This document shows positions 4,280 through 29,366 of a DNA stretch of 29,366 nt, piece after piece; within the stretch, counting starts at the first letter, position 1; every line of letters starts with the position of its first letter. Under the pieces are notes generated by a model. The model did no database searches, was not told the origin of the DNA, and saw nothing but the letters and a program-made list of their open reading frames with translations. A program made the position numbers and the translations under genes. The stretch comes from a virus: IMG/VR virus record IMGVR_UViG_3300046514_000188, positions 1 through 29,366 of that record; one strand, 5' to 3'.

Positions 4280-4516
4280 ATGGAAAGACAACCACAGGCG
4301 CGCGCCCGGGCTCGTTACAATCGCAAGAAGATGCCACGCACCAAGGTGCCGCACCCGCTCGATGCGGCGCTGCGCAAACACGTCCGCGACCTCAATCCCT
4401 TTTGTCCGGTTTGTGTCCGCGCTGCACAGAAACCGCGGCTTGCACTGAATTTCCAATTGCGTTTGGCGAATGGTTCCGGCGATAACTGGCCGGGTGCACT
4501 GCTTCTAAAGGAGTGA
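4280..4516 (+). CDS. Small basic protein with a CPVC motif, 78 aa (putative)
   Basis: The first open frame after the rightward promoter starts at ATG 4280, about five bases from the predicted transcription start, so it would be nearly leaderless. The N-terminus is strongly basic (MERQPQARARARYNRKKMPRTK), then DAALRKHVRDLNPFCPVCVRAAQ with a C-x2-C pair. Its last codons contain the AAAGGAG ribosome binding site for the next start, and its TGA is five bases before that ATG. This fits translational coupling to the integrase frame. No family is recognised. An internal ATG at 4331 is an alternative start. Confidence 0.45.
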   Translation: MERQPQARARARYNRKKMPRTKVPHPLDAALRKHVRDLNPFCPVCVRAAQKPRLALNFQLRLANGSGDNWPGALLLKE

Positions 4517-4521
4517 TCCCC

Positions 4522-4725
4522 ATGTCGACCGTTCCCAGCCGTGTCAGCGTGTGCCGGGCGATCTCCCAGTTGTCCCGTGATTTTTTTGTTCCGCTCGCGC
4601 GGATGATTTTGAGTGCTGCTCGCGACGACGCATATTCCAGATCGCCAGCACGCTTTTTACCGCTCGCCGGCCTTCACTCGGCAAGCCTTCCCAATCGCGC
4701 AACAGTTTCAGAAAGTAGGAGTTTT
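4522..4725 (+). other. In-frame 5' extension of the integrase with its own ribosome binding site
   Basis: AAAGGAG at 4507-4513 is ideally placed for ATG 4522, which opens a frame that runs without a stop into the integrase at 4726. The 68 encoded residues (MSTVPSRVSVCRAIS...) look like no known integrase N-terminus and contain a T7 tract at 4581-4587. Either two integrase forms are made, or this is a leader. The typical integrase opening begins only at 4726. Confidence 0.5.
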
Positions 4726-5988
4726 ATGAGCAGGGGACGGACAACGCCGCTACCGCCGGGAGTCTCGCGCGAACCAGATGGACGCCTCCGCGCCCGCGTC
4801 AATGTCGGCGGCCGTCCCGCCTCGCGACGCTTTCCGCCAGACACCGACCCCGCCGTCGCCGCGGCGTGGATTGAAACGACGCGCTGCGCCCTCACCGACC
4901 AGCGCGCGGACTATGGCGATGCGCCGCTCGTGACCCACCGGCCGGCGCGGGATGGGAGCAGTTCGCTGGAGACGGAGGTCGCGCGGTATCTCCCACAGAT
5001 CGCCGGGCGGCCGAGCACGAAGGCGGATACGTCGCACCTGCGCGCCTGGCTCGCCGTGGTGATCGAAGGCGTGCGGCTCGGGACGCTGCGCCGCTCGGCC
5101 ATCACGACCGAGCTCGTCAATCTCGCCATCGCCCAGTGGCGCACGATGCCCTCGTCACACACCGTGCGCCGGGTGCGGGTGATGGCGCACGACCGCGACG
5201 GGCACACGATGCCGGCGTATGAACGGAAGGCACCCGTCACGAGCGGCGCCGTCGTCTCAGACCGGACGATTCGGCATCGGTGCCGCGTCCTCGCGGATCT
5301 GTATCACGCGCTGGACGGGAAACGCGCGATCACGCCCGTGGACGATGCCAAGCTTCCGAAGCTCCCGAAGGACCATCCCATCGGCGTCGACGTCTCGATC
5401 GTCTTGGCGGTCGCCTGGAAGCTGGCGCAGGCCACGGTGTCCAGGCCGCGTGTGCGGGCGCCGCACGATCCCGAGGCGTATGCGGCGCGCGAGGCGGCCA
5501 GGCGCCGCGACTACCAACAAACCTACGCGCGGTATGTCGTGCTCGTCACGACCGGGCAGCGACCGTGTCAGGTCATGCGCGCGCAGCCCGAGGATCTCGA
5601 TCTGGAGCTCGGCACGTGGCTGGTCCGGAGCGCGAAGCTTGAGCCCGCGCACACCATCACGTTAACGGCGGATATGCGCCAGGCCTGGCAGGCGTTCATC
5701 GACGCCGAGGCGTGGGGCGACTACGACACGACGACGCACGCCAACCGGGTGCACGAGGCCGGGTGGCCGCGCGGCGTCCGGCCCTACAACGCGCGCCACA
5801 CCCTGATGATGGATGCGCTGAAGGCCGGCATCGACCTGGGCGATGTCCAGGCGCTCGCCGGCCACACCAGTCCGTTGACGACCCGGCGCACATATGCGCC
5901 GCACCAGATCGACCGGCAGCGCGCCGTGACCCAAAAACTTGAGGGGCGGATGAAGGATCTGTTTGCGCCGCGGCTGGTGAAAAAATGA
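4726..5988 (+). CDS. int: Phage tyrosine recombinase (integrase), 420 aa from the internal start
   Basis: Catalyses site-specific recombination between attP and the host tRNA-fMet gene. Reading from ATG 4726 (AGGAG close upstream), residues about 8-30 (PPGVSREPDGRLRARVNVGG) are the usual integrase arm-binding start. A core-binding region follows (SHLRAWLAVVIEGVRLGTL). The catalytic domain has TTGQRPCQVMRAQPEDLDL (Arg I), RSAKLEPAHTI (Lys), YNARHT (Arg II; Tyr where many members have His), LAGHTS (His) and RTYAPH (nucleophile Tyr). The frame is open further upstream, and ATG 4522, with its own AAAGGAG, would add 68 residues that do not resemble an integrase domain. The stop lies directly beside attP. 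Confidence 0.93.
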   Translation: MSRGRTTPLPPGVSREPDGRLRARVNVGGRPASRRFPPDTDPAVAAAWIETTRCALTDQRADYGDAPLVTHRPARDGSSSLETEVARYLPQIAGRPSTKADTSHLRAWLAVVIEGVRLGTLRRSAITTELVNLAIAQWRTMPSSHTVRRVRVMAHDRDGHTMPAYERKAPVTSGAVVSDRTIRHRCRVLADLYHALDGKRAITPVDDAKLPKLPKDHPIGVDVSIVLAVAWKLAQATVSRPRVRAPHDPEAYAAREAARRRDYQQTYARYVVLVTTGQRPCQVMRAQPEDLDLELGTWLVRSAKLEPAHTITLTADMRQAWQAFIDAEAWGDYDTTTHANRVHEAGWPRGVRPYNARHTLMMDALKAGIDLGDVQALAGHTSPLTTRRTYAPHQIDRQRAVTQKLEGRMKDLFAPRLVKK

Positions 5989-18168: not shown

Positions 18169-20085
18169 TCAGGCGCCCTTGTAGCCGGCGATCGACACCT
18201 TCGTGCTGGCGCTCGTCGTCACGTTCTGCACAAAGATGGCGGTCGCGGTCGTCGGTTGTCGCAGCGGTGTGGGAAATGTCACGACCGCGCCGCCTTGTGC
18301 CGCGGCGGCCGGCACCACCCACAGCGTCGTGCCGCTGCTGCCATCCTGAATCAGCACATCGGTCGGATGGGTCGCATCGGAGTTCGACACCGTGATCGTC
18401 GTGATGTAGTTCCGCAATCCGGCGGCCGGCGCGGCGACGCAGGTGGTCGAGGTGGTGGCCGTCATCTGGCCGGCGGTGACACCGGAGACAAAATTCTCCG
18501 GATTCGCATAGGGTAGGACGATCAGCTTCCCGACCAGATCCGCGACGAGTTGCACCATGCGCCCGGTCGTGACCGCGCTGTTCTCGGCGCTGACCGCCTG
18601 CGCGCCGTTGTTGATCGGATTCGACCCAATCGCAACATTGTTCGCGACGTTGCCGCCGACCGCGAGGGTCCCGTTCACGCCGGCCGTCGCGGTCGTCTGA
18701 CCGCCGACCTGCGCCAGGTTCACCGACTGGTTCGCCGGCAGCGCCACACTGTCGGGCGTCACCAGCAGCTTTGTCATGCTGGCGGCGCCCTGCACGGTGA
18801 CGACGCCGCCGGCCGGCGTGCCGGCGACGCCCGCGCCGATCACGGTCGCATTGAGGGAGGCGGCGACGGCCTGGGCGACATTGACCAGGCCCGTGCCATC
18901 CGTGGGGAGCTCGACGCGCAGCGCCCCGGTGGCGACGCCGTGGCCGGTGACCGGCTGCGTCCCGTTCCAGTCCACCGACAGCGACGCCGCATTGTCATCG
19001 ACATGGACGACGTTGCTGATGGTGCTGACCGTGCCCGAGTCCACGATCACATGGCCGATGACGTTGGTGCCGGCGTTGAGGCCGACCACGCCGGTGCCAT
19101 CGGTCGGGAGTTCGACGCGCAGCGCGCTCGCCGCCGTGCCGTGGCCGGTGACCGCCGCCGTGCCGCTCCAATTAACCCCGACTCCATCGGGGACCGACAC
19201 ATACAGCTGGCCCTTGTTCGTGGCATTCAACGCGATGTTGTCGCCATCGGCACTGACCTGCGACGTGGTCAGGATGTCCTGGCGCCGCGCCATCAGCATG
19301 TTGCCGATCGGGTCCGCGAGGGCTGGCACGTCTTCGGTGGCTTGCGTGCCGCCGCTGACACTGACCGCGGTGCCGGCGGCGTCCAGCAGCGTCACGTAGG
19401 CGGCGCCGAAGTTGGTGCCGCGCTGCGCGATGTTGTCGCCGTTGGTCGTGACCGTGGCGGCCGGCGTATCGGCGCGCACAAGGATCAGGGCCGTGCCGGT
19501 CGGGTCGCCGGCCGCCGGCGCATCCTCCGTGTATTGCGTGCCGCCGCCGATCGACGCCGAGTTGTCGACGTTGACGTGTAAGCGGTGGTTCACCGAATCC
19601 CAGACATCCGCGGTGATCTTGTCCAGGCCGCGCAGATGGCTGTTGACGGTGCCGGGGTTATCCCCGACCACCGCGGGGTCGGTGGTGCTGCCGGTGGCCG
19701 CATCCGCCCCGTCGGCGATCGATACCGCGCCGCCGCCGCTGCCGCCGCCGGCCGCCGCCGCCCCACCCGTCGCCGCCTCCACCGCATTGAGGGTGACGAC
19801 CGCCTGGCCGCTCGTCCAGGCCGACATCCGGACCTGCATCGACACCAGCGGCGCCGCCGCCTGCCACAGCCCGTTCACGGTGGTTTGCACCACCGACACG
19901 GTGCCAGCGATCGGCGTGGCACTGAGCGCGGTGAACGTCACGCCATCGATGCTGCCTTCGAACTGCACCGTGCCGGCCCAGGTGCCGGTGATCTGGATGC
20001 CGAACCCCGCCAGGCCAGGCGGCGTCAGGCGCACCGTGGCGCCGACCGCGGCGAGGAGGCCGACGTTTTGTGCGGAGGGCGCCAT
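18169..20085 (-). CDS. Repetitive fibre / head-spike protein, 638 aa
   Basis: Almost entirely beta-structured and Gly/Ala/Thr/Val-rich. Residues about 1-105 look like a separate beta domain (GFGIQITGTWAGTVQFEGSIDG), followed by a Gly/Ala linker. Tandem repeats can be seen: GGTQYTEDAPAAGDPTGTAL and GGTQATEDVPALADPIGNML; GTAAVTGHGTAASALRVELP and GTQPVTGHGVATGALRVELP. The C-terminal 90 residues (YITTITVSNSDATHPTDVLIQ...STKVSIAGYKG) form another beta domain. It follows the spike-base gene by overlapping starts and stops, so it is probably the fibre mounted on it. Confidence 0.8.
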   Translation of the reverse strand: MAPSAQNVGLLAAVGATVRLTPPGLAGFGIQITGTWAGTVQFEGSIDGVTFTALSATPIAGTVSVVQTTVNGLWQAAAPLVSMQVRMSAWTSGQAVVTLNAVEAATGGAAAAGGGSGGGAVSIADGADAATGSTTDPAVVGDNPGTVNSHLRGLDKITADVWDSVNHRLHVNVDNSASIGGGTQYTEDAPAAGDPTGTALILVRADTPAATVTTNGDNIAQRGTNFGAAYVTLLDAAGTAVSVSGGTQATEDVPALADPIGNMLMARRQDILTTSQVSADGDNIALNATNKGQLYVSVPDGVGVNWSGTAAVTGHGTAASALRVELPTDGTGVVGLNAGTNVIGHVIVDSGTVSTISNVVHVDDNAASLSVDWNGTQPVTGHGVATGALRVELPTDGTGLVNVAQAVAASLNATVIGAGVAGTPAGGVVTVQGAASMTKLLVTPDSVALPANQSVNLAQVGGQTTATAGVNGTLAVGGNVANNVAIGSNPINNGAQAVSAENSAVTTGRMVQLVADLVGKLIVLPYANPENFVSGVTAGQMTATTSTTCVAAPAAGLRNYITTITVSNSDATHPTDVLIQDGSSGTTLWVVPAAAAQGGAVVTFPTPLRQPTTATAIFVQNVTTSASTKVSIAGYKGA

Positions 20086-20351: not shown

Positions 20352-20915
20352 TTAGTAATTCCCTGTGTGATATTTCATGGCCGCTTCAAGAAACCCAGGT
20401 TTGTCAAAAGCCGCCATGAGGGTATTGCAGCTATTACATAACAGACCTCGAACCTTCCCGGTCTGATGGCAATGATCAATACATGGCCGATAGAGCTGCA
20501 CATCACACACAGCACAGAGTCCAGATTGTTCAATCATCATGCGATCAAAATCATGCCGCCGGATGCGATACATCGTCCACAGTGAATCGTCGTAGCTGTC
20601 GCGCGTGTATTTCCCTTTCTTCTCGGCTGTAATTCCACGCTGACATTCACGGCAATACCAATGCAATCCGTCGACGGATGACCGATTCAGCGCGAACTGG
20701 AGACGCTCTCTCATCTGGTTGCAGCGGCTGCATCGTTTGGACTCTGGTAATTTGTCAACGTTGAATTTGCTCTTGTTTTTCGCGTAATAGCGCGCCTGTT
20801 CTTTGCGATTGCAGATCCTACATGTCCGACCTAGCCCATTTATGTGCTGTGCCGATTTAAAAAAGTCCGTCAACGGTTTGAGCGTATTGCACGACGTGCA
20901 TTGTTGAGTGTCCAT
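20352..20915 (-). CDS. HNH / recombination endonuclease VII family endonuclease, inserted in the virion module, 187 aa
   Basis: Cuts DNA, probably as a free-standing homing endonuclease. Two N-terminal zinc-ribbon-like repeats (CTSCNTLKPLTDFF...CRICNRKEQARYY; CSRCNQMRERLQF...CRECQRG) precede the Endo VII core CAVCDVQLYRPCIDHCHQTGKVRGLLCNSCNTLMAAF, with the D-H-C-H metal/catalytic set and paired Cys. ATG 20915 is preferred over TTG 20921. The gene is visibly more A+T-rich than every neighbour and interrupts the conserved order of head and spike genes. Its C-terminal codons repeat the end of the adjacent gp4-like gene (14-base near-repeat), suggesting insertion. Confidence 0.88.
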   Translation of the reverse strand: MDTQQCTSCNTLKPLTDFFKSAQHINGLGRTCRICNRKEQARYYAKNKSKFNVDKLPESKRCSRCNQMRERLQFALNRSSVDGLHWYCRECQRGITAEKKGKYTRDSYDDSLWTMYRIRRHDFDRMMIEQSGLCAVCDVQLYRPCIDHCHQTGKVRGLLCNSCNTLMAAFDKPGFLEAAMKYHTGNY

Positions 20916-20947
20916 CCACAAACAATATCCAGCCTACAACATAAAAT

Positions 20948-23454: not shown

Positions 23455-24681
23455 CTAACTCCAAAGACGAAGCGCGAAATAAGGCAACACCGACGCCACG
23501 CCCCCGATCGAGTCGATGCGTGACGGTTGCTGATCGGTCTGGATGTTGTACTGCTCCACCCACCGCAGGCTCACGCCGGTTTCCTTATCGTTCTTCCGTG
23601 CGGCGTTCGCCCCTGGCAGCTTCGACGGCAGATCGACCATCACGAATGCGAAGGCGGCGGGGTTGAAGAGCAGCGACTGCTTGCTGCTCTGCGTCGCCAT
23701 CGTGCCGGCGACGGCGCCCGTGGCGCCGACGAACAGGATGCTGGCGTTGTTCGCGGGCGAGGCGGTCACGGTCTGCAGCGCGCCGCTGGTGATGATCGGC
23801 GGGCTGATCGTCAGCGTCGCGGTGCTGGTGCCCGAGACATCCGCGACGAGCACGAACTGCTGCAGGTCGCCCGTGTCGATGTAGGACACCGGGTTCACCG
23901 CGTTCACGCCGGCAATCGTGAACACGTCGCCGGCCTTCAAGGCGTAGGTGCCCCAACCGCTGGTCGTGACCGTCGATCCGGTCTGGCCTGCGCTGTTCAC
24001 CAGCGGCGTGCTCGCCGTGAACGTGCCGGTCGTGTGCGTCGGGACGTTCGGATCCCAATACCACTCATCGATGCCCATCGCCGCGCCGGAGAACTGGCCG
24101 GTCTTCCAATAGGTGGTGATCTGATTCTGGGGATTGAACTGCGTGAACGCGGTTTTCAGAATCGCGCTCTGCGATTTCGGGTCGAGCACCGCGCAGAATT
24201 CGTCGGGGACGCCAACGTTGCGCAGCTTCGCGACCGCATCGGTATACGTGCCTTCCGCCGAGATCGGCGTGCCCGGTGAGCCTGCGGAGTAGTAGACCGA
24301 CTTGTAGACTTCCGCGCCCGCGACCACGTCCCACTTGTTCGCCTGCGCGGCACCCGCGGGCTTCGTATACCGCTCCTGCACTTCTTCGACGAGCAGGCGG
24401 TCATCGGCGCTCGACCACCCCATGCCGACCTGGAACTGATGGTTGACCGTGATCGGGACGGTCTGATTGAAAATCGCCTGCTGCACGAGCGCCTGGCCTT
24501 CGGTCACGACGAAGCGCTGTTGAATGCGCGCCTGCACCGTGTAGCCGATTTTTGCGCCGCCGGGATCGTTCTCCCACGTGCGGTCCCACGAGCGGTCGAA
24601 CTGCCCGATTAACTTGAGATTGTTCTTGAAATTGACGGCGACGTCGGTAGTAACCCAACTTGGACTGATAAACGTATTCAA
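23455..24681 (-). CDS. Major capsid (coat) protein, P22 gp5-like, 408 aa, TTG start
   Basis: Forms the HK97-fold capsid shell on the scaffold. The start NTFISPSWVTTDVAVNFKNNLKLIGQFDR is the typical P22 coat-family opening ('NTFitp..i...al..l.nnl...'). The end LFNPAAFAFVMVDLPSKLPGA and GVSLRWVEQYNIQTDQQPSRIDSIGGVASVLPYFALRLW is also typical. A Ser/Thr/Val-rich region at about 215-305 is probably the inserted telokin-like domain. The start codon is a TTG (24679-24681) and no ATG fits the family's beginning. It sits next to the scaffold, as in P22. Confidence 0.88.
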   Translation of the reverse strand: MNTFISPSWVTTDVAVNFKNNLKLIGQFDRSWDRTWENDPGGAKIGYTVQARIQQRFVVTEGQALVQQAIFNQTVPITVNHQFQVGMGWSSADDRLLVEEVQERYTKPAGAAQANKWDVVAGAEVYKSVYYSAGSPGTPISAEGTYTDAVAKLRNVGVPDEFCAVLDPKSQSAILKTAFTQFNPQNQITTYWKTGQFSGAAMGIDEWYWDPNVPTHTTGTFTASTPLVNSAGQTGSTVTTSGWGTYALKAGDVFTIAGVNAVNPVSYIDTGDLQQFVLVADVSGTSTATLTISPPIITSGALQTVTASPANNASILFVGATGAVAGTMATQSSKQSLLFNPAAFAFVMVDLPSKLPGANAARKNDKETGVSLRWVEQYNIQTDQQPSRIDSIGGVASVLPYFALRLWS

Positions 24682-24714: not shown

Positions 24715-25695
24715 CTAGGCCCGACGACGACCGTTGCGGTAGTAGAACTGTTCGTGCGCCGCAAGCGAGGCGTCATCACCCGGCGGTTCGTCACCACCGC
24801 GCATCGGACCAGTCCGCACCGGATTAGGCGGGCGTGGGACCTGAGATGTCATCACGGGCGCAGTAGCCGATCCGGTGCCGGCAGCTACACTGCGCGTGGA
24901 GGGAGACGGCGCAGCGAGGTGCTGCGAAATGAGCGCGAGCGTTTCGAGTTGATCGAGCGGCGACTGCGCGAGCACGCGCGGGAGCTCGCCGGGGAATTTT
25001 TGGAAGTAGTAGAGGACGTCGGCGCCGGTGCGGTGTTCCCAGACCCAGCGGTCGATCAGCGAGCCCTGCGGAATCGCGGAGGGCGCATTGAGCGCGACGT
25101 CGTTGAAATCGGGATACCGTTCCTGCGCGCTTGCCACTTTTTGTTGGAACGTCTGCGCGAACTGGCGCTCGGCCTGCTGCTGCTGGACCTGCTGTTCGCG
25201 GCGCCGGTAGGTCCAGTCGGCCATCGCTTCTGCGTGACGCTCGACGGCCAGGTTGTAGTCCTCGTCGGGCTTCAACTGGTCGATGAAGCCCTGGAGCCTA
25301 GGCGCCTGCGTCGATGCCGGCGTGGGGGGCGCGGCGGGCCGCGGGGCGGGTGCGGGCGCCGGGGCGGCGCGGCGCAGCGACTCGAGTTCGGCTTCGCGCT
25401 CGCGCAGGCGCTTCGTTAGTTCGTTGATGCGGGGCGCGTCGGCCGGCGTGGCGGCGTGGCTTTTCGCGCGCTTGCCGGACTTGAAGCGGCCCTGCTCATC
25501 GCGCTCGCCCGCCGCCGGCTCGGCGCCGTCTGCGCTTGAGGTCGCGGACGGCTCTGGAGCGTCGGCGGCGGGCGCGTCACGGTCGTTTCGGGCTTGCGCT
25601 GAGAATTGAGCCTCGTGGTCCGAGAGGGACAGTTCGGCCGGTTCGGCGGGGGGACTGCCGGCGTCAGCGCTGGGAACCGGGAGCTCGTCGGCCAC
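24715..25695 (-). CDS. Scaffolding protein, 326 aa, GTG start
   Basis: Guides coat assembly and leaves the procapsid. The acidic, Ala/Pro/Ser-rich N-terminus with DEQGRFKSGKRAKSH is followed by a coiled coil (INELTKRLREREAELESLRR) and a Pro/Ala linker. The conserved-looking helical part (RLQGFIDQLKPDEDYNLAVERHAEAMADWTYRRREQQVQQQQAERQFAQTFQQKVASAQERYPDF) and a Gly/Pro-rich tail ending YYRNGRRR complete it. The basic C-terminal end would bind coat protein. The gene lies between portal-side genes and coat, as gp8 does in P22. GTG 25693-25695 was chosen as start; the preceding site is weak. Confidence 0.82.
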   Translation of the reverse strand: MADELPVPSADAGSPPAEPAELSLSDHEAQFSAQARNDRDAPAADAPEPSATSSADGAEPAAGERDEQGRFKSGKRAKSHAATPADAPRINELTKRLREREAELESLRRAAPAPAPAPRPAAPPTPASTQAPRLQGFIDQLKPDEDYNLAVERHAEAMADWTYRRREQQVQQQQAERQFAQTFQQKVASAQERYPDFNDVALNAPSAIPQGSLIDRWVWEHRTGADVLYYFQKFPGELPRVLAQSPLDQLETLALISQHLAAPSPSTRSVAAGTGSATAPVMTSQVPRPPNPVRTGPMRGGDEPPGDDASLAAHEQFYYRNGRRRA

Positions 25696-25768: not shown

Positions 25769-27190
25769 CTACTTGGTGCTGTCGTCTGAATGGAGTTGGG
25801 AGGCGGCGGCGCCGGCGGCGAGCGGCGGCAGCAGGCCGTATTTGCGGAGGATCTCGATCAGTTTGTCATCGTGGACGACGTAGTTGCGCGTGCCGGGGTC
25901 CGCGATCTTTTGCTGCGCCCACGTCTCGGCCGCTTCGCGCGTCGCGTGCGGGGCGCTGGTCGTAAAGTATTGCTCCCCGTTCGCGCGGTTTAGGCGAATC
26001 TTGCTCTGCCAGCCCTCTGGCCCCTTGAAGACGTCGATCAATTCACCACCGGTCGTGCTGCGGGAGGCTTGATCCAGATACTTCACCCCTGGCACGCCGC
26101 GTTCCTTGAGCCAGTCAGCGGCGAACTGCGCATCTGGCCCCAGTTCCCGATAAAGTTCCGCGCCGGTGCGCGGCCTCGTGGGATCGTTCGCGGCCCATCG
26201 CTTCGCGACTAATTCTTGCACGGCGGCAGGTTGCTCACTTATTGGCTTGTCCCAATCTAAAAACTGCGCTGGATCAGCCTTGATATTCACTTCATATGTT
26301 TTGCCGCTAGGTTTTAATTGCGCGGGGTCCAAGGCGGCGAGCGCATCAGCCGCCCGGTCATACATGGCATCAGACCCGTAGCCGGACTCATACTTCCGCA
26401 TAAACTCCGCGTGGTCGCGCAATTCTTTGATGCGACGCGGCAGAGCCTCCGTCATCGACTCACCGCTCCGCACGTTACCAGACAGAAAATCTAGATCGCG
26501 GCCGAGGCTTGACCGTGGGTCAACCGGCTGTCCTTGATATTCAAAGCCCTTCGAGAGTGCCTGTTTGTAGCACTTTGCCACTCCCTCGTTCTCCGCGAAA
26601 TACAGCCCATGCCCATACGCCTGCGCGCCTTCGCCCGTGCCGACCTTGCCCAGATCGAACCGCTCGAAGTCGTGCGGCGAGCCGTGATAGGCGCGGATGC
26701 CTTGCGCTGCACTCTCTGCGCCCTCCGCGGCGCGTTCGCCCGTCGCCAGCGCCTTCAGCGCCTTGCCAGGTATGAACGGCGCGGCCGCCGCCAACAGGGC
26801 GCCCGCATTCGTCCACGTCGGACCTGCCGGCCCCTGATCACCAAGGCCTGTGACGCCACGGAATAGGTCCATGCCGCGTTCCAGATACGGCGCGAGAAAC
26901 GCTAACGGCGGCGTCTGCGCCGCCGCCTGCCCATACTGATTCGGCTGCACGACCGCGTTGCCCTGCGCGTCCTTCTCGTTGTCGCCCTGGAACACCGGCC
27001 GCACGACCGCCTCGCCCTGCGGATCTTTCTCGTTGCTGCTCTGGAACAGCGCGTGGACCTGACCTTGCTGCTGCACCAGCAGCTGCGCGCCGAGCTCGGC
27101 GTCGTCCCACTCGCTATACGCCTCGGGATTCTGTTCCTTCATCCGCCGGCCGATCGCGGCGGCGAGGTCGGCCATGTCCATCGCAGGCAT
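25769..27190 (-). CDS. Two-part protein: shared N-terminal domain + ADP-ribosyltransferase-like domain (ART-PolyVal type), 473 aa
   Basis: Residues 1-150 are shared with the neighbour at 27193-27906, except that the NEKD-QG-AVV-P motif occurs twice here. From about 165 begins an ADP-ribosyltransferase-like domain: AYHGSPHDFERFD, GTGEGAQAYGHGLYFAEN (H-G...G.GLYF NAD-binding pattern), a helical insert, then KTYEVNIKADPAQFLDWDKP and VPGVKYLDQ, closing with NYVVHDDKLIEILRKYG. A short beta-alpha insert (about 385-432, GWQSKIRLNRANGEQYFTTSAPHATREAAETWA) interrupts the end. Between portal and scaffold, it could be packaged and injected to modify host proteins. The family call is by motif; catalysis is unproven. 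Confidence 0.82.
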   Translation of the reverse strand: MPAMDMADLAAAIGRRMKEQNPEAYSEWDDAELGAQLLVQQQGQVHALFQSSNEKDPQGEAVVRPVFQGDNEKDAQGNAVVQPNQYGQAAAQTPPLAFLAPYLERGMDLFRGVTGLGDQGPAGPTWTNAGALLAAAAPFIPGKALKALATGERAAEGAESAAQGIRAYHGSPHDFERFDLGKVGTGEGAQAYGHGLYFAENEGVAKCYKQALSKGFEYQGQPVDPRSSLGRDLDFLSGNVRSGESMTEALPRRIKELRDHAEFMRKYESGYGSDAMYDRAADALAALDPAQLKPSGKTYEVNIKADPAQFLDWDKPISEQPAAVQELVAKRWAANDPTRPRTGAELYRELGPDAQFAADWLKERGVPGVKYLDQASRSTTGGELIDVFKGPEGWQSKIRLNRANGEQYFTTSAPHATREAAETWAQQKIADPGTRNYVVHDDKLIEILRKYGLLPPLAAGAAASQLHSDDSTK

Positions 27191-27192
27191 GT

Positions 27193-27906
27193 TTATGGTT
27201 CCTGATTTCTGCGGCTCGGCACCACCTGCCCGATCATCGCGTTCTGTCCGCGCCTCGCCTGTTCTTCGAGTGCGACCTTGAGATTTCTAGCCACATCTGG
27301 TCCCGACGTTGACCGCAGACGCCAGATTTCGTTAGCAAGTCCAGCGTCAGATAAGGTCCGCGCCGTATTGCGATACGCATCGTAGCCAGTGGCTTGGTTG
27401 ATGCGGCCTATTTCAGTGAGTGCGTCTCGGAGTTCACCACCACCTTCGTTAGCTCGTTGTGCAACGCGAATGGCCTGGGCGGCTTCTTCTGCCGCGCGTT
27501 CACCACTCGCCGCCGCCTTCACAGCCGAAAGTCCTTTGGGTGCAAACGGCAGCACCGCCGCGAGCAGTTGGCCGGCGTTCGTCCACGTCGGACCCGCCGG
27601 CCCCTGATCCCCAATGCCCGTGGCGCCCCGCAAGAGGTCCATACCACGTTCTAGATAGGGCGCGAGAAACGCTAAAGGCGGCGTTTGCTCCTGCAGCGCC
27701 TGCCCATACTGATTCGGCCGCACGACGGCATTACCCTGCGGGTCTTTTTCGTTGCTGCCTTGGAATAGCCCGTGGACCTGCCCCTGGTGCTGGATCAGCA
27801 ACTGCGCGCCGAGCTCGGCGTCCGGCCAGTCGCCATACGCCTCCGGATTCTGCTCCTTCGCCGCGCGTCCGATCGCCGCCGCGAGCTCGGCAAGGTCCGT
27901 AGGCAT
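27193..27906 (-). CDS. Paralogue with the shared N-terminal domain and a different C-terminus, 237 aa
   Basis: Residues 1-140 match the start of the next gene closely (LAAAIGR..KEQNPEAY..W.DAELGAQLL.Q.QGQVH.LFQ, NEKDPQGNAVVRPNQYGQ, TPPLAFLAPYLERGMDL.RG.TG.GDQGPAGPTWTNAG). After that it diverges into a helical C-terminus (LRDALTEIGRINQATGYDAYRNTARTL, LANEIWRLRSTSGPDVARNLKVALEEQARR) with no ADP-ribosyltransferase motifs. The start overlaps the portal stop (TGATG) and the gene ends two bases before the paralogue starts. The DNA is also closely similar in the shared part, so the duplication is recent or kept alike by conversion. Confidence 0.8.
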   Translation of the reverse strand: MPTDLAELAAAIGRAAKEQNPEAYGDWPDAELGAQLLIQHQGQVHGLFQGSNEKDPQGNAVVRPNQYGQALQEQTPPLAFLAPYLERGMDLLRGATGIGDQGPAGPTWTNAGQLLAAVLPFAPKGLSAVKAAASGERAAEEAAQAIRVAQRANEGGGELRDALTEIGRINQATGYDAYRNTARTLSDAGLANEIWRLRSTSGPDVARNLKVALEEQARRGQNAMIGQVVPSRRNQEP

Positions 27907-29366
27907 CAGACCGCCCCGGCGGGCTCAGGCGCGGGTTGTGGCGGCGGGGGCTGCGCGCCCTGCTCGAGCGCCTGCGCGTGCGCCTGGTCCCCCTGCTGCA
28001 ACGTCTGCGCGTGCTCCTGCGCCCCGAGCGCCGCCTCGTGCGCCCGGTCCATCATGCCCTGCTGCGCCTCGTGCTGCTGCGACCCGACCCGCGCCCGCTC
28101 CTCGAGGAACAGCGCCATCCGGTCGACCTTCGCGCCGAGCTCGGCGACGGTGATCTTCGTCTCGCGGTCCAGCGCCGCAATCCGCTCGCGTGATTCGAGC
28201 TCCATCTGCGTGCGCCTGAGTTCGGTCTGATACTTCGCGTTGTCGCTCTGGATTTCCTGCGAGGCGTGCTGCAGAAGCTTCTCGGCGTCATTCAACCGCT
28301 GTTGTAGCTGCTGCATCTGCGCCGCAATCGGCGGCGGAATCGCGCCCTGGCCTTGCGCCTGCTGCGTCAGCATCTGCTGGATCGGTGGCGCCAGCATCAC
28401 CTTCGCGCGCTCGGCCATCTCGAGATGTCCCGGCCCGTCTTGGTTTTTCAAGAACAAGTCGCCGAACCAGGTAATCAGCTGCGGATTGGCCTGGATCAGA
28501 TCCGCCATCATCGAGGCCTCTTCCTGCCGGCGTGAATCGAACGCTTTCGTCACTCTGACCACGACGTTGAAGGTCGCATCCGGCGTCAGCGTGTAGACGG
28601 GCGGCGTCGGTGGTGGCGCTGGCGCCGGCGGCCGCATCATGCCTGGCGGCATGCCCGGCGGCATCATCCCTGGAGGCGGTGCGCCCATTGGTCCCGGCGG
28701 CGGTCCCCCTGGTCCCATCGGCGTGGGGGCGCCAGTGAGAGGCGGCCCAGGCAGACCTGGCATCGGCGGGCCGCCAGGCGCACCACCCATCGGCGGCGGC
28801 ATCATCCCTGGCATGGTGCTCGTCGCGCCTTGTCCCATTCCCGGCGGCATGAACGTCGGCGTCGGCCGCTGCCCGATCTGCACGGTCTCAGGCTCACCTT
28901 GGCCGTTGATGATCCGTGCGAGTCTACCGGGCCGCTTGCCGTAGATCGGATACAGCAGGTTGTTGACGATCTGCCCTTCGTAGCGCATCGACCGCCTGAG
29001 GTTATTCAAGAAGTGGCTGGTGCCGTGCTGTGACTGCGCGATCAGCACCTGCGCCATCTTGCCGCTGCGAATGCTTGAATCCTGCCGGCCGATGTTCGCG
29101 TCGGGCACGCCGGTCGTGCTCTTGATCGCCTGGTCAAACATCTGCACGCTGAGGGCGAGGTCGTTGATCGGCGTGTCGACCGGCGTCCGAAACGGCGGCG
29201 GCGCCGGATTGCCCATGAGGTCCGTGGTCTTGTAGGGCAACGCCGGCAGCGTGCGCGTCGTCGCCGCCTGATACCACGCGCGATAGACTTCCCACGTCCC
29301 CTCGGCCACCATCCACGGCGGAATCGGCGTCAGGCCGACCGTCTCCACCAGTTTGCTGACCATCGA
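27906..29366 (-). CDS. Portal protein, P22 gp1-like (partial, N-terminus off the right edge)
   Basis: Twelve-subunit ring through which DNA is packaged and ejected. The open frame enters from the right edge; the Met at 29363 is internal. The visible 486 residues include SGKMAQVLIAQSQHGTSHFLNNLRRSMRYEGQIVNNLLYPIYGKRPGRLARI (P22-portal wing/stem region). An approximately 80-residue Pro/Gly/Met-rich insert (about 170-250) follows, then FNVVVRVTKAFDSRRQEEASMMADLIQANP. The long helical C-terminus is Gln/Glu/His-rich (MQQLQQRLNDAEKLLQHASQEIQ...EALGAQEHAQTLQQ), resembling the P22 barrel that extends into the capsid. The Pro/Gly/Met insert is not usual. The family call is good. Confidence 0.87.
   Translation of the reverse strand, partial: SMVSKLVETVGLTPIPPWMVAEGTWEVYRAWYQAATTRTLPALPYKTTDLMGNPAPPPFRTPVDTPINDLALSVQMFDQAIKSTTGVPDANIGRQDSSIRSGKMAQVLIAQSQHGTSHFLNNLRRSMRYEGQIVNNLLYPIYGKRPGRLARIINGQGEPETVQIGQRPTPTFMPPGMGQGATSTMPGMMPPPMGGAPGGPPMPGLPGPPLTGAPTPMGPGGPPPGPMGAPPPGMMPPGMPPGMMRPPAPAPPPTPPVYTLTPDATFNVVVRVTKAFDSRRQEEASMMADLIQANPQLITWFGDLFLKNQDGPGHLEMAERAKVMLAPPIQQMLTQQAQGQGAIPPPIAAQMQQLQQRLNDAEKLLQHASQEIQSDNAKYQTELRRTQMELESRERIAALDRETKITVAELGAKVDRMALFLEERARVGSQQHEAQQGMMDRAHEAALGAQEHAQTLQQGDQAHAQALEQGAQPPPPQPAPEPAGAV

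What the first reader, a model, noticed from the sequence alone, without database searches (positions are those of the whole stretch)
25769..27906. Tandem genes with one common N-terminal domain and exchangeable C-termini, one an ADP-ribosyltransferase
Both proteins begin with the same 140-150 residues, including the motif KEQNPEAY..W.DAELGAQLL. One ends in an ADP-ribosyltransferase-like domain, the other in an unknown helical domain. They lie between portal and scaffold. A plausible reading is that the shared domain loads the protein into the capsid and the variable end acts in the host after injection, so the locus would be a cassette for delivered effectors. Sharing is visible; packaging and delivery are inferred.
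Basis: partly seen in the sequence, partly recalled or inferred. Interest (0 to 1): 0.78.

Follow-up and report, generated by a model that had tools for sequence, protein, structure and literature searches.

The report
Swappable phage head-gene slot carrying ADP-ribosyltransferase
A soil-type short-tailed phage carries, between two head-assembly genes, a swappable pair of sister genes with the same front end, one of which ends in an enzyme domain that probably rides in the virus particle and chemically tags host molecules at the start of infection; the enzyme class was already known, but the exchange slot and shared front end had not been described in anything I read.

Summary
The 237-aa and 473-aa proteins share their N-terminal ~149 residues (69% identity, E=1e-62), lie between a P22-like portal and the scaffold, and the longer one ends in an ADP-ribosyltransferase (ART). 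The ART belongs to the known ART-PolyVal/HYD2 class: H169, Y197 and D373 are 99-100% conserved in 81 relatives, and its predicted fold matches a cyanophage pre-ejectosome chain (Z 11.1) and PARP ART domains (Z about 8).

The shared part is not one domain. It is a 3-helix module A, a repeated disordered linker and a hydrophobic module B; A and B each occur without the other.

The portal-scaffold interval is an exchange slot. In 36 loci it runs from -4 to 2,452 bp: empty, HNH endonuclease, small ORFs, ART with another N-terminus, or module A followed by an unrelated 600-aa region in another frame. Flanking genes stay up to 98.7% identical.

Packaging and delivery are therefore plausible, from ART gene neighbourhoods, the ejectosome match and published precedent. 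They are not shown: module A is missing from every other ART family seen, and the slot also takes HNH genes, which are not expected to be packaged.

Verdict: a new variant of known phage ART effectors, in an exchange slot analogous to, not homologous with, the MuF toxin slot.

The parts
27193..27906 (-). 237-aa protein: module A + linker + module B + private helical C-terminus
   Evidence: ATG overlaps the portal stop codon by one base (TGATG)
25769..27190 (-). 473-aa protein: module A + duplicated linker + module B + ART domain
   Evidence: starts 2 nt after the 237-aa gene
27736..27906 (-). module A (residues 1-57) in the 237-aa protein
   Evidence: local HMM search
27020..27190 (-). module A (residues 1-57) in the 473-aa protein; predicted 3-helix mini-domain, residues 6-43 mostly at pLDDT about 90-96
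26942..27052 (-). tandem duplicated linker (ALFQSSNEKDPQGEAVVRP / VFQGDNEKDAQGNAVVQP) in the 473-aa protein
27715..27771 (-). single linker unit (GLFQGSNEKDPQGNAVVRP) in the 237-aa protein
26693..26914 (-). module B (TPPLAFLAPYLERGMDLFRG..PTWTNAGALLAAAAPF) in the 473-aa protein; also precedes the ART in L088
   Evidence: L088 E=2.4e-16
27466..27684 (-). module B in the 237-aa protein
25835..26701 (-). ART domain (residues 164-452) with conserved H169, Y197, D373
25895..26059 (-). beta-beta-beta-alpha insert in the ART (residues 378-432), dsRBD/RAD52-like shape; near-identical insert in L082
27196..27465 (-). private C-terminus of the 237-aa protein (about 90 aa), no homologue found
27906..29366 (-). 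P22-like portal, truncated by contig end
   Evidence: longer in L005
24715..25695 (-). head scaffolding protein
   Evidence: phrog_8865
23455..24681 (-). major capsid protein, P22 coat family

Best explanation
The portal-scaffold interval of this podovirus group is an accessory, exchangeable slot inside the late head operon. In this phage it holds a duplicated gene pair. The 473-aa copy is an H-Y-D type ADP-ribosyltransferase of the ART-PolyVal class. Most likely it is made with the head proteins, enclosed in the procapsid next to the portal, ejected with the DNA, and ADP-ribosylates a host macromolecule early in infection. The 237-aa copy keeps the same N-terminal region on a different C-terminus and is probably a second cargo or a helper packaged the same way. 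Shown: shared N-termini, ART identity, head-operon position, exchange of slot contents. Inferred: packaging, ejection, catalysis, target, and a loading role for module A.
For: Shared N-termini under purifying selection, dN/dS 0.26. Overlap with the portal stop codon (TGATG) and a 2-nt gap between the genes. H169/Y197/D373 conserved in 99-100% of 81 relatives, the triad given for polyvalent-protein ARTs by Iyer et al. 2017 (PMC5512222). Structural matches to a cyanophage A4 pre-ejectosome chain (Z 11.1, 138 residues) and PARP1/tankyrase ART domains (Z about 8); ART-PolyVal viral proteins are among Foldseek's best viral hits. ART in the same slot with a different N-terminus in L070 and in phiGT1. 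Portal and terminase are the commonest annotated upstream neighbours of 53 ART genes. Slot contents vary while the right flank is 98.7% identical over 10 kb between window and L015. The third slot content, a 600-aa region, sits in the same slot in L171 and next to a transglycosylase-bearing protein in L180. Phage ARTs are frequently encoded beside head genes and thought to be packaged (PMC9503650).
Against: No virion proteomics for this phage; I could not read the phiGT1 mass-spectrometry table. Ten of 36 slots are effectively empty and others hold HNH genes, so the slot is not dedicated to packaged proteins. Module A is absent from all other ART proteins seen. The 237-aa C-terminus has no known relative.
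Confidence: 0.6

Rival explanations
1. Moron model: the slot is a generic insertion site for accessory genes. The ART is expressed late inside the producing cell and acts there (anti-defence, superinfection exclusion or host shut-off) without being packaged; position between head genes only reflects tolerated insertion.
For: The same slot holds HNH endonucleases and assorted small ORFs or nothing. In L088 a related ART with module B sits after an adaptor-type gene instead.
Against: ART genes across phages cluster with portal, terminase and scaffold genes. The closest solved fold is a virion ejection-complex protein. Expression with head genes would be late for most host-takeover roles (inference).
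Confidence: 0.27
2. Structural paralogue model: module A + B is a minor head or portal-associated part and the variable C-termini are decoration; the ART fold serves a structural or vestigial role.
For: Shared N-terminus conserved under purifying selection next to the portal.
Against: The slot is empty in 10 of 36 loci with the same head genes. All three catalytic residues are retained.
Confidence: 0.08
3. Toxin-immunity model: the pair is a polymorphic toxin (473 aa) and a cognate partner (237 aa) that neutralises it by pairing through the shared N-terminus.
For: Adjacent genes with a common N-terminus, one without catalytic domain; MuF phage toxins include ARTs (PMC5576092).
Against: No small immunity-type ORF follows the ART (73 nt to the scaffold), unlike 89% of MuF toxins. 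ART genes in L070 and phiGT1 have no such paralogous partner.
Confidence: 0.05

Closest known systems
ART-PolyVal (Pfam PF18760) / Tox-ART-HYD2 ARTs of phage polyvalent proteins (Iyer et al. 2017, PMC5512222)
   Same: Same domain family, same H-Y-D residues, head-gene neighbourhood, proposed packaging and injection.
   Different: Here the ART is in a small protein with only one recognisable enzymatic domain, and is paired with a paralogue sharing its N-terminus.
MuF polymorphic toxins of temperate phages (PMC5576092)
   Same: Gene next to the portal, constant N-terminus with exchangeable C-termini, ART among the C-termini, delivery proposed but unproven.
   Different: No MuF domain detected, no small downstream immunity ORF, P22-like podovirus, N-terminal module unrelated.
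Sulfitobacter phage phiGT1 gp5
   Same: ART with 31% identity over residues 165-451, two genes downstream of the portal and ahead of the scaffold.
   Different: Different N-terminus; the gene before it (gp4) is not a paralogue.
T4 Alt
   Same: ART carried in the phage head and injected to modify host proteins (literature).
   Different: Different ART clade (R-S-E) from a myovirus; not compared by sequence here.
Cyanophage A4 pre-ejectosome protein (PDB 9k3a chain B)
   Same: ART-like fold match, Z 11.1 over 138 residues, in a phage ejection complex.
   Different: 1,071-residue chain; no sequence-level match by profile search.

Membership tests
ART-PolyVal / Tox-ART-HYD2 | Match to Pfam PF18760 at the curated cut-off | tested here: inconclusive
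   Window protein 26.3 bits against cut-off 31.2; its homologue L070 passes with 32.4
ART-PolyVal / Tox-ART-HYD2 | H in strand 1, Y in strand 2, D in strand 5 | tested here: met
   H169, Y197, D373 at 99%, 100%, 100% of 81 sequences, in or directly after predicted strands E165-171, E196-199 and E368-372
ART-PolyVal / Tox-ART-HYD2 | ART fold | tested here: met
   PARP1, tankyrase and cyanophage A4 chains at Z 8-11; ART-PolyVal viral models among top Foldseek hits. Foldseek against PDB alone gave nothing significant
ART-PolyVal / Tox-ART-HYD2 | NAD-dependent ADP-ribosylation | not testable with these tools
   needs an enzyme assay
Polyvalent proteins | Two or more functionally disparate domains in one polypeptide | tested here: inconclusive
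   Only the ART is recognised; module A and the dsRBD-shaped insert have no assigned function
Polyvalent proteins | Packaged in capsid and injected | not testable with these tools
   gene context only
MuF polymorphic toxins | N-terminal MuF domain (PF04233 or PF06152) | tested here: not met
   no such match up to E=1 in Pfam-A
MuF polymorphic toxins | Gene in the portal/terminase module with exchangeable C-terminal domains | tested here: met
MuF polymorphic toxins | Small immunity-type ORF downstream | tested here: not met
   73 nt between ART stop and scaffold start

The most novel reading that the evidence does not exclude
Module A is a small capsid- or portal-docking tag, independent of MuF, that this phage group attaches to interchangeable effector domains, so the portal-scaffold slot is a modular delivery cassette, with two differently armed proteins carried in the same virion.
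Probability: 0.3. Interest if true: 0.68.

Novelty: new variant of a known kind. Interest (0 to 1): 0.46.

Why it matters
If the proteins are packaged, a 40-residue module and a defined gene slot would give a testable, natural delivery tag in a P22-like head, and slot contents across relatives would be a list of candidate first-minute effectors. Even if they are not packaged, the portal-scaffold interval is a clearly bounded accessory hotspot that can be mined for phage genes of unknown function.

Tried and rejected
Foldseek against PDB with the whole model gave no significant hit (best E 0.04), dominated by the dsRBD-shaped insert; the second aligner recovered ART folds. Profile searches of PDB sequences found nothing relevant. 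The 600-aa region of L006 was folded but with mean pLDDT 43, so no fold search was run. Host assignment failed: neither the N-terminal region nor an alignment of ten capsid proteins found a bacterial genome contig. The N-terminal module was not found in phage, plasmid or genome collections, nor in further viral contigs with a degenerate motif. NCBIfam gave nothing. The idea that the 237-aa C-terminus is a decayed ART was tested by DNA and six-frame comparison and not supported. I could not find the cyanophage A4 structure paper in the library.

Full report
1. The observation. On the - strand the window reads portal (27906-29366, cut by the contig end), a 237-aa gene (27193-27906), a 473-aa gene (25769-27190), scaffold (24715-25695) and major capsid protein (23455-24681). 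Portal and coat match P22 families and the scaffold matches phrog_8865. The two proteins share 103 of 149 aligned N-terminal residues (E=1e-62). Their C-termini are unrelated, also at DNA level. The portal stop and the first ATG overlap (TGATG), and two bases separate the sister genes, so both belong to the head operon. dN/dS of 0.26 at dS 0.60 shows that both shared parts have been kept, not left to decay.

2. The shared part is modular. A model of the 473-aa protein (41 sequences in the alignment, mean pLDDT 74) shows a confident three-helix unit at residues 6-43, mostly low confidence from 44 to 124, then helices leading into the ART. Residues 47-83 are two copies of an 18-19 residue unit, of which the 237-aa protein has one. 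Module A (1-57) is found in the window and in six viral contigs: two nearly identical relatives (L004, L005) and four contigs of one other phage type (L006-L009). It was not found in 50,697 phage records, 72,556 plasmids or the bacterial and archaeal genome contigs. Module B also precedes an ART in L088, without module A (E=2.4e-16).

3. The ART. Pfam ART-PolyVal matches at 1.4e-5, below its cut-off, but homologue L070 passes it. Across 81 sequences H169, Y197 and D373 are 99-100% conserved, which is the H-Y-D set described for polyvalent-protein ARTs (PMC5512222). VIA-align matched residues 122-454 to a cyanophage A4 pre-ejectosome chain (Z 11.1, rmsd 3.4, 138 residues) and to tankyrase and PARP1 ART domains (Z about 8). 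Phage proteins, several named ART-PolyVal, lead the Foldseek viral hits. An insert at 378-432 has a dsRBD/RAD52-like shape and is nearly identical in L082. Catalysis and target are untested.

4. The slot. I collected 67 loci around related capsid genes and could measure the portal-scaffold gap in 36, counting the window. It runs from -4 to 2,452 bp. Ten are effectively empty (93 bp or less). Others hold HNH-type genes (L019, L022, L025, L026, L041, L052), small ORFs, an ART with a different N-terminus (L070), or module A followed by a 600-aa region (L015 and L006-L009). Some of these loci are near-identical copies of one phage, so the counts are loci, not independent events. The right flank is 98.7% identical over 10.3 kb between the window and L015 and 97.9% over 2.5 kb to L019, with the break just after the ART stop codon. 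The HNH gene of L019 ends in a short relic that resembles the start of module A. So the content is exchanged while the flanks stay.

5. The third partner. In L006-L009 and L015, module A and the following 600-aa region lie in different reading frames, so a single polypeptide is not shown there. The 600-aa region recurs in the same slot of a distant phage (L171) behind a different N-terminus, and in L180 next to a protein with a transglycosylase-type domain. Its fold could not be predicted.

6. Where ARTs of this kind lie. Of 53 immediate upstream neighbours of ART genes, portal and terminase families are the commonest named matches; portal and head-tail adaptor lead downstream, followed by scaffold. 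The family counts may overlap, so I treat them as minima. N-termini ahead of the ART vary from about 10 to several hundred residues with no common domain visible. phiGT1 gp5 is an ART in the equivalent interval; whether it is in the virion is recorded in a supplementary table that I could not open.

7. Reading. The most probable mechanism is delivery of the ART with the genome, as argued in general for phage ARTs near head genes (PMC9503650) and for MuF toxins (PMC5576092). What is new here is the bounded exchange slot in P22-like podoviruses and the sister pair with a common front end; I found no earlier description, but only open-licence papers could be searched. The idea that module A is the loading signal is not excluded but has only lineage-specific support. 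The main rival is a generic accessory-gene site whose products act in the producing cell; the HNH occupants favour it. I therefore file this as a variant of phage ART effectors, working like a MuF cassette but not a member of it.

Noticed in passing
window 4513-5988 (+): Tyrosine integrase gene (PF00589, phrog_1), suggesting a temperate phage; no host genome was found.
   Followed up: partly
L006:5998-8149, L015:4552-6703 and sister contigs: Module A and the following 600-aa open region are in different reading frames in four contigs of one phage type, so it is either a fixed frameshift or unusual decoding.
   Followed up: partly
L019:5184-5777: HNH-type gene in the slot whose last residues (PPDLSELAAQLGAQLLV) look like a relic of module A.
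   Followed up: partly
window 25895-26059: beta-beta-beta-alpha insert of about 55 aa within the ART; about a quarter of relatives have an insert at this point, of varying sequence.
   Followed up: partly
window 18883-19170: Internal repeats of 87 bp within the 638-aa gene (79% match between window and L015 at shifted positions).
   Followed up: no
L088:5767-6981: ART protein with module B but no module A, encoded after an adaptor-like gene rather than next to the portal.
   Followed up: partly
window 20352-20921 (-): Endonuclease VII family gene whose protein also matches a Lar-like restriction alleviation family.
   Followed up: no
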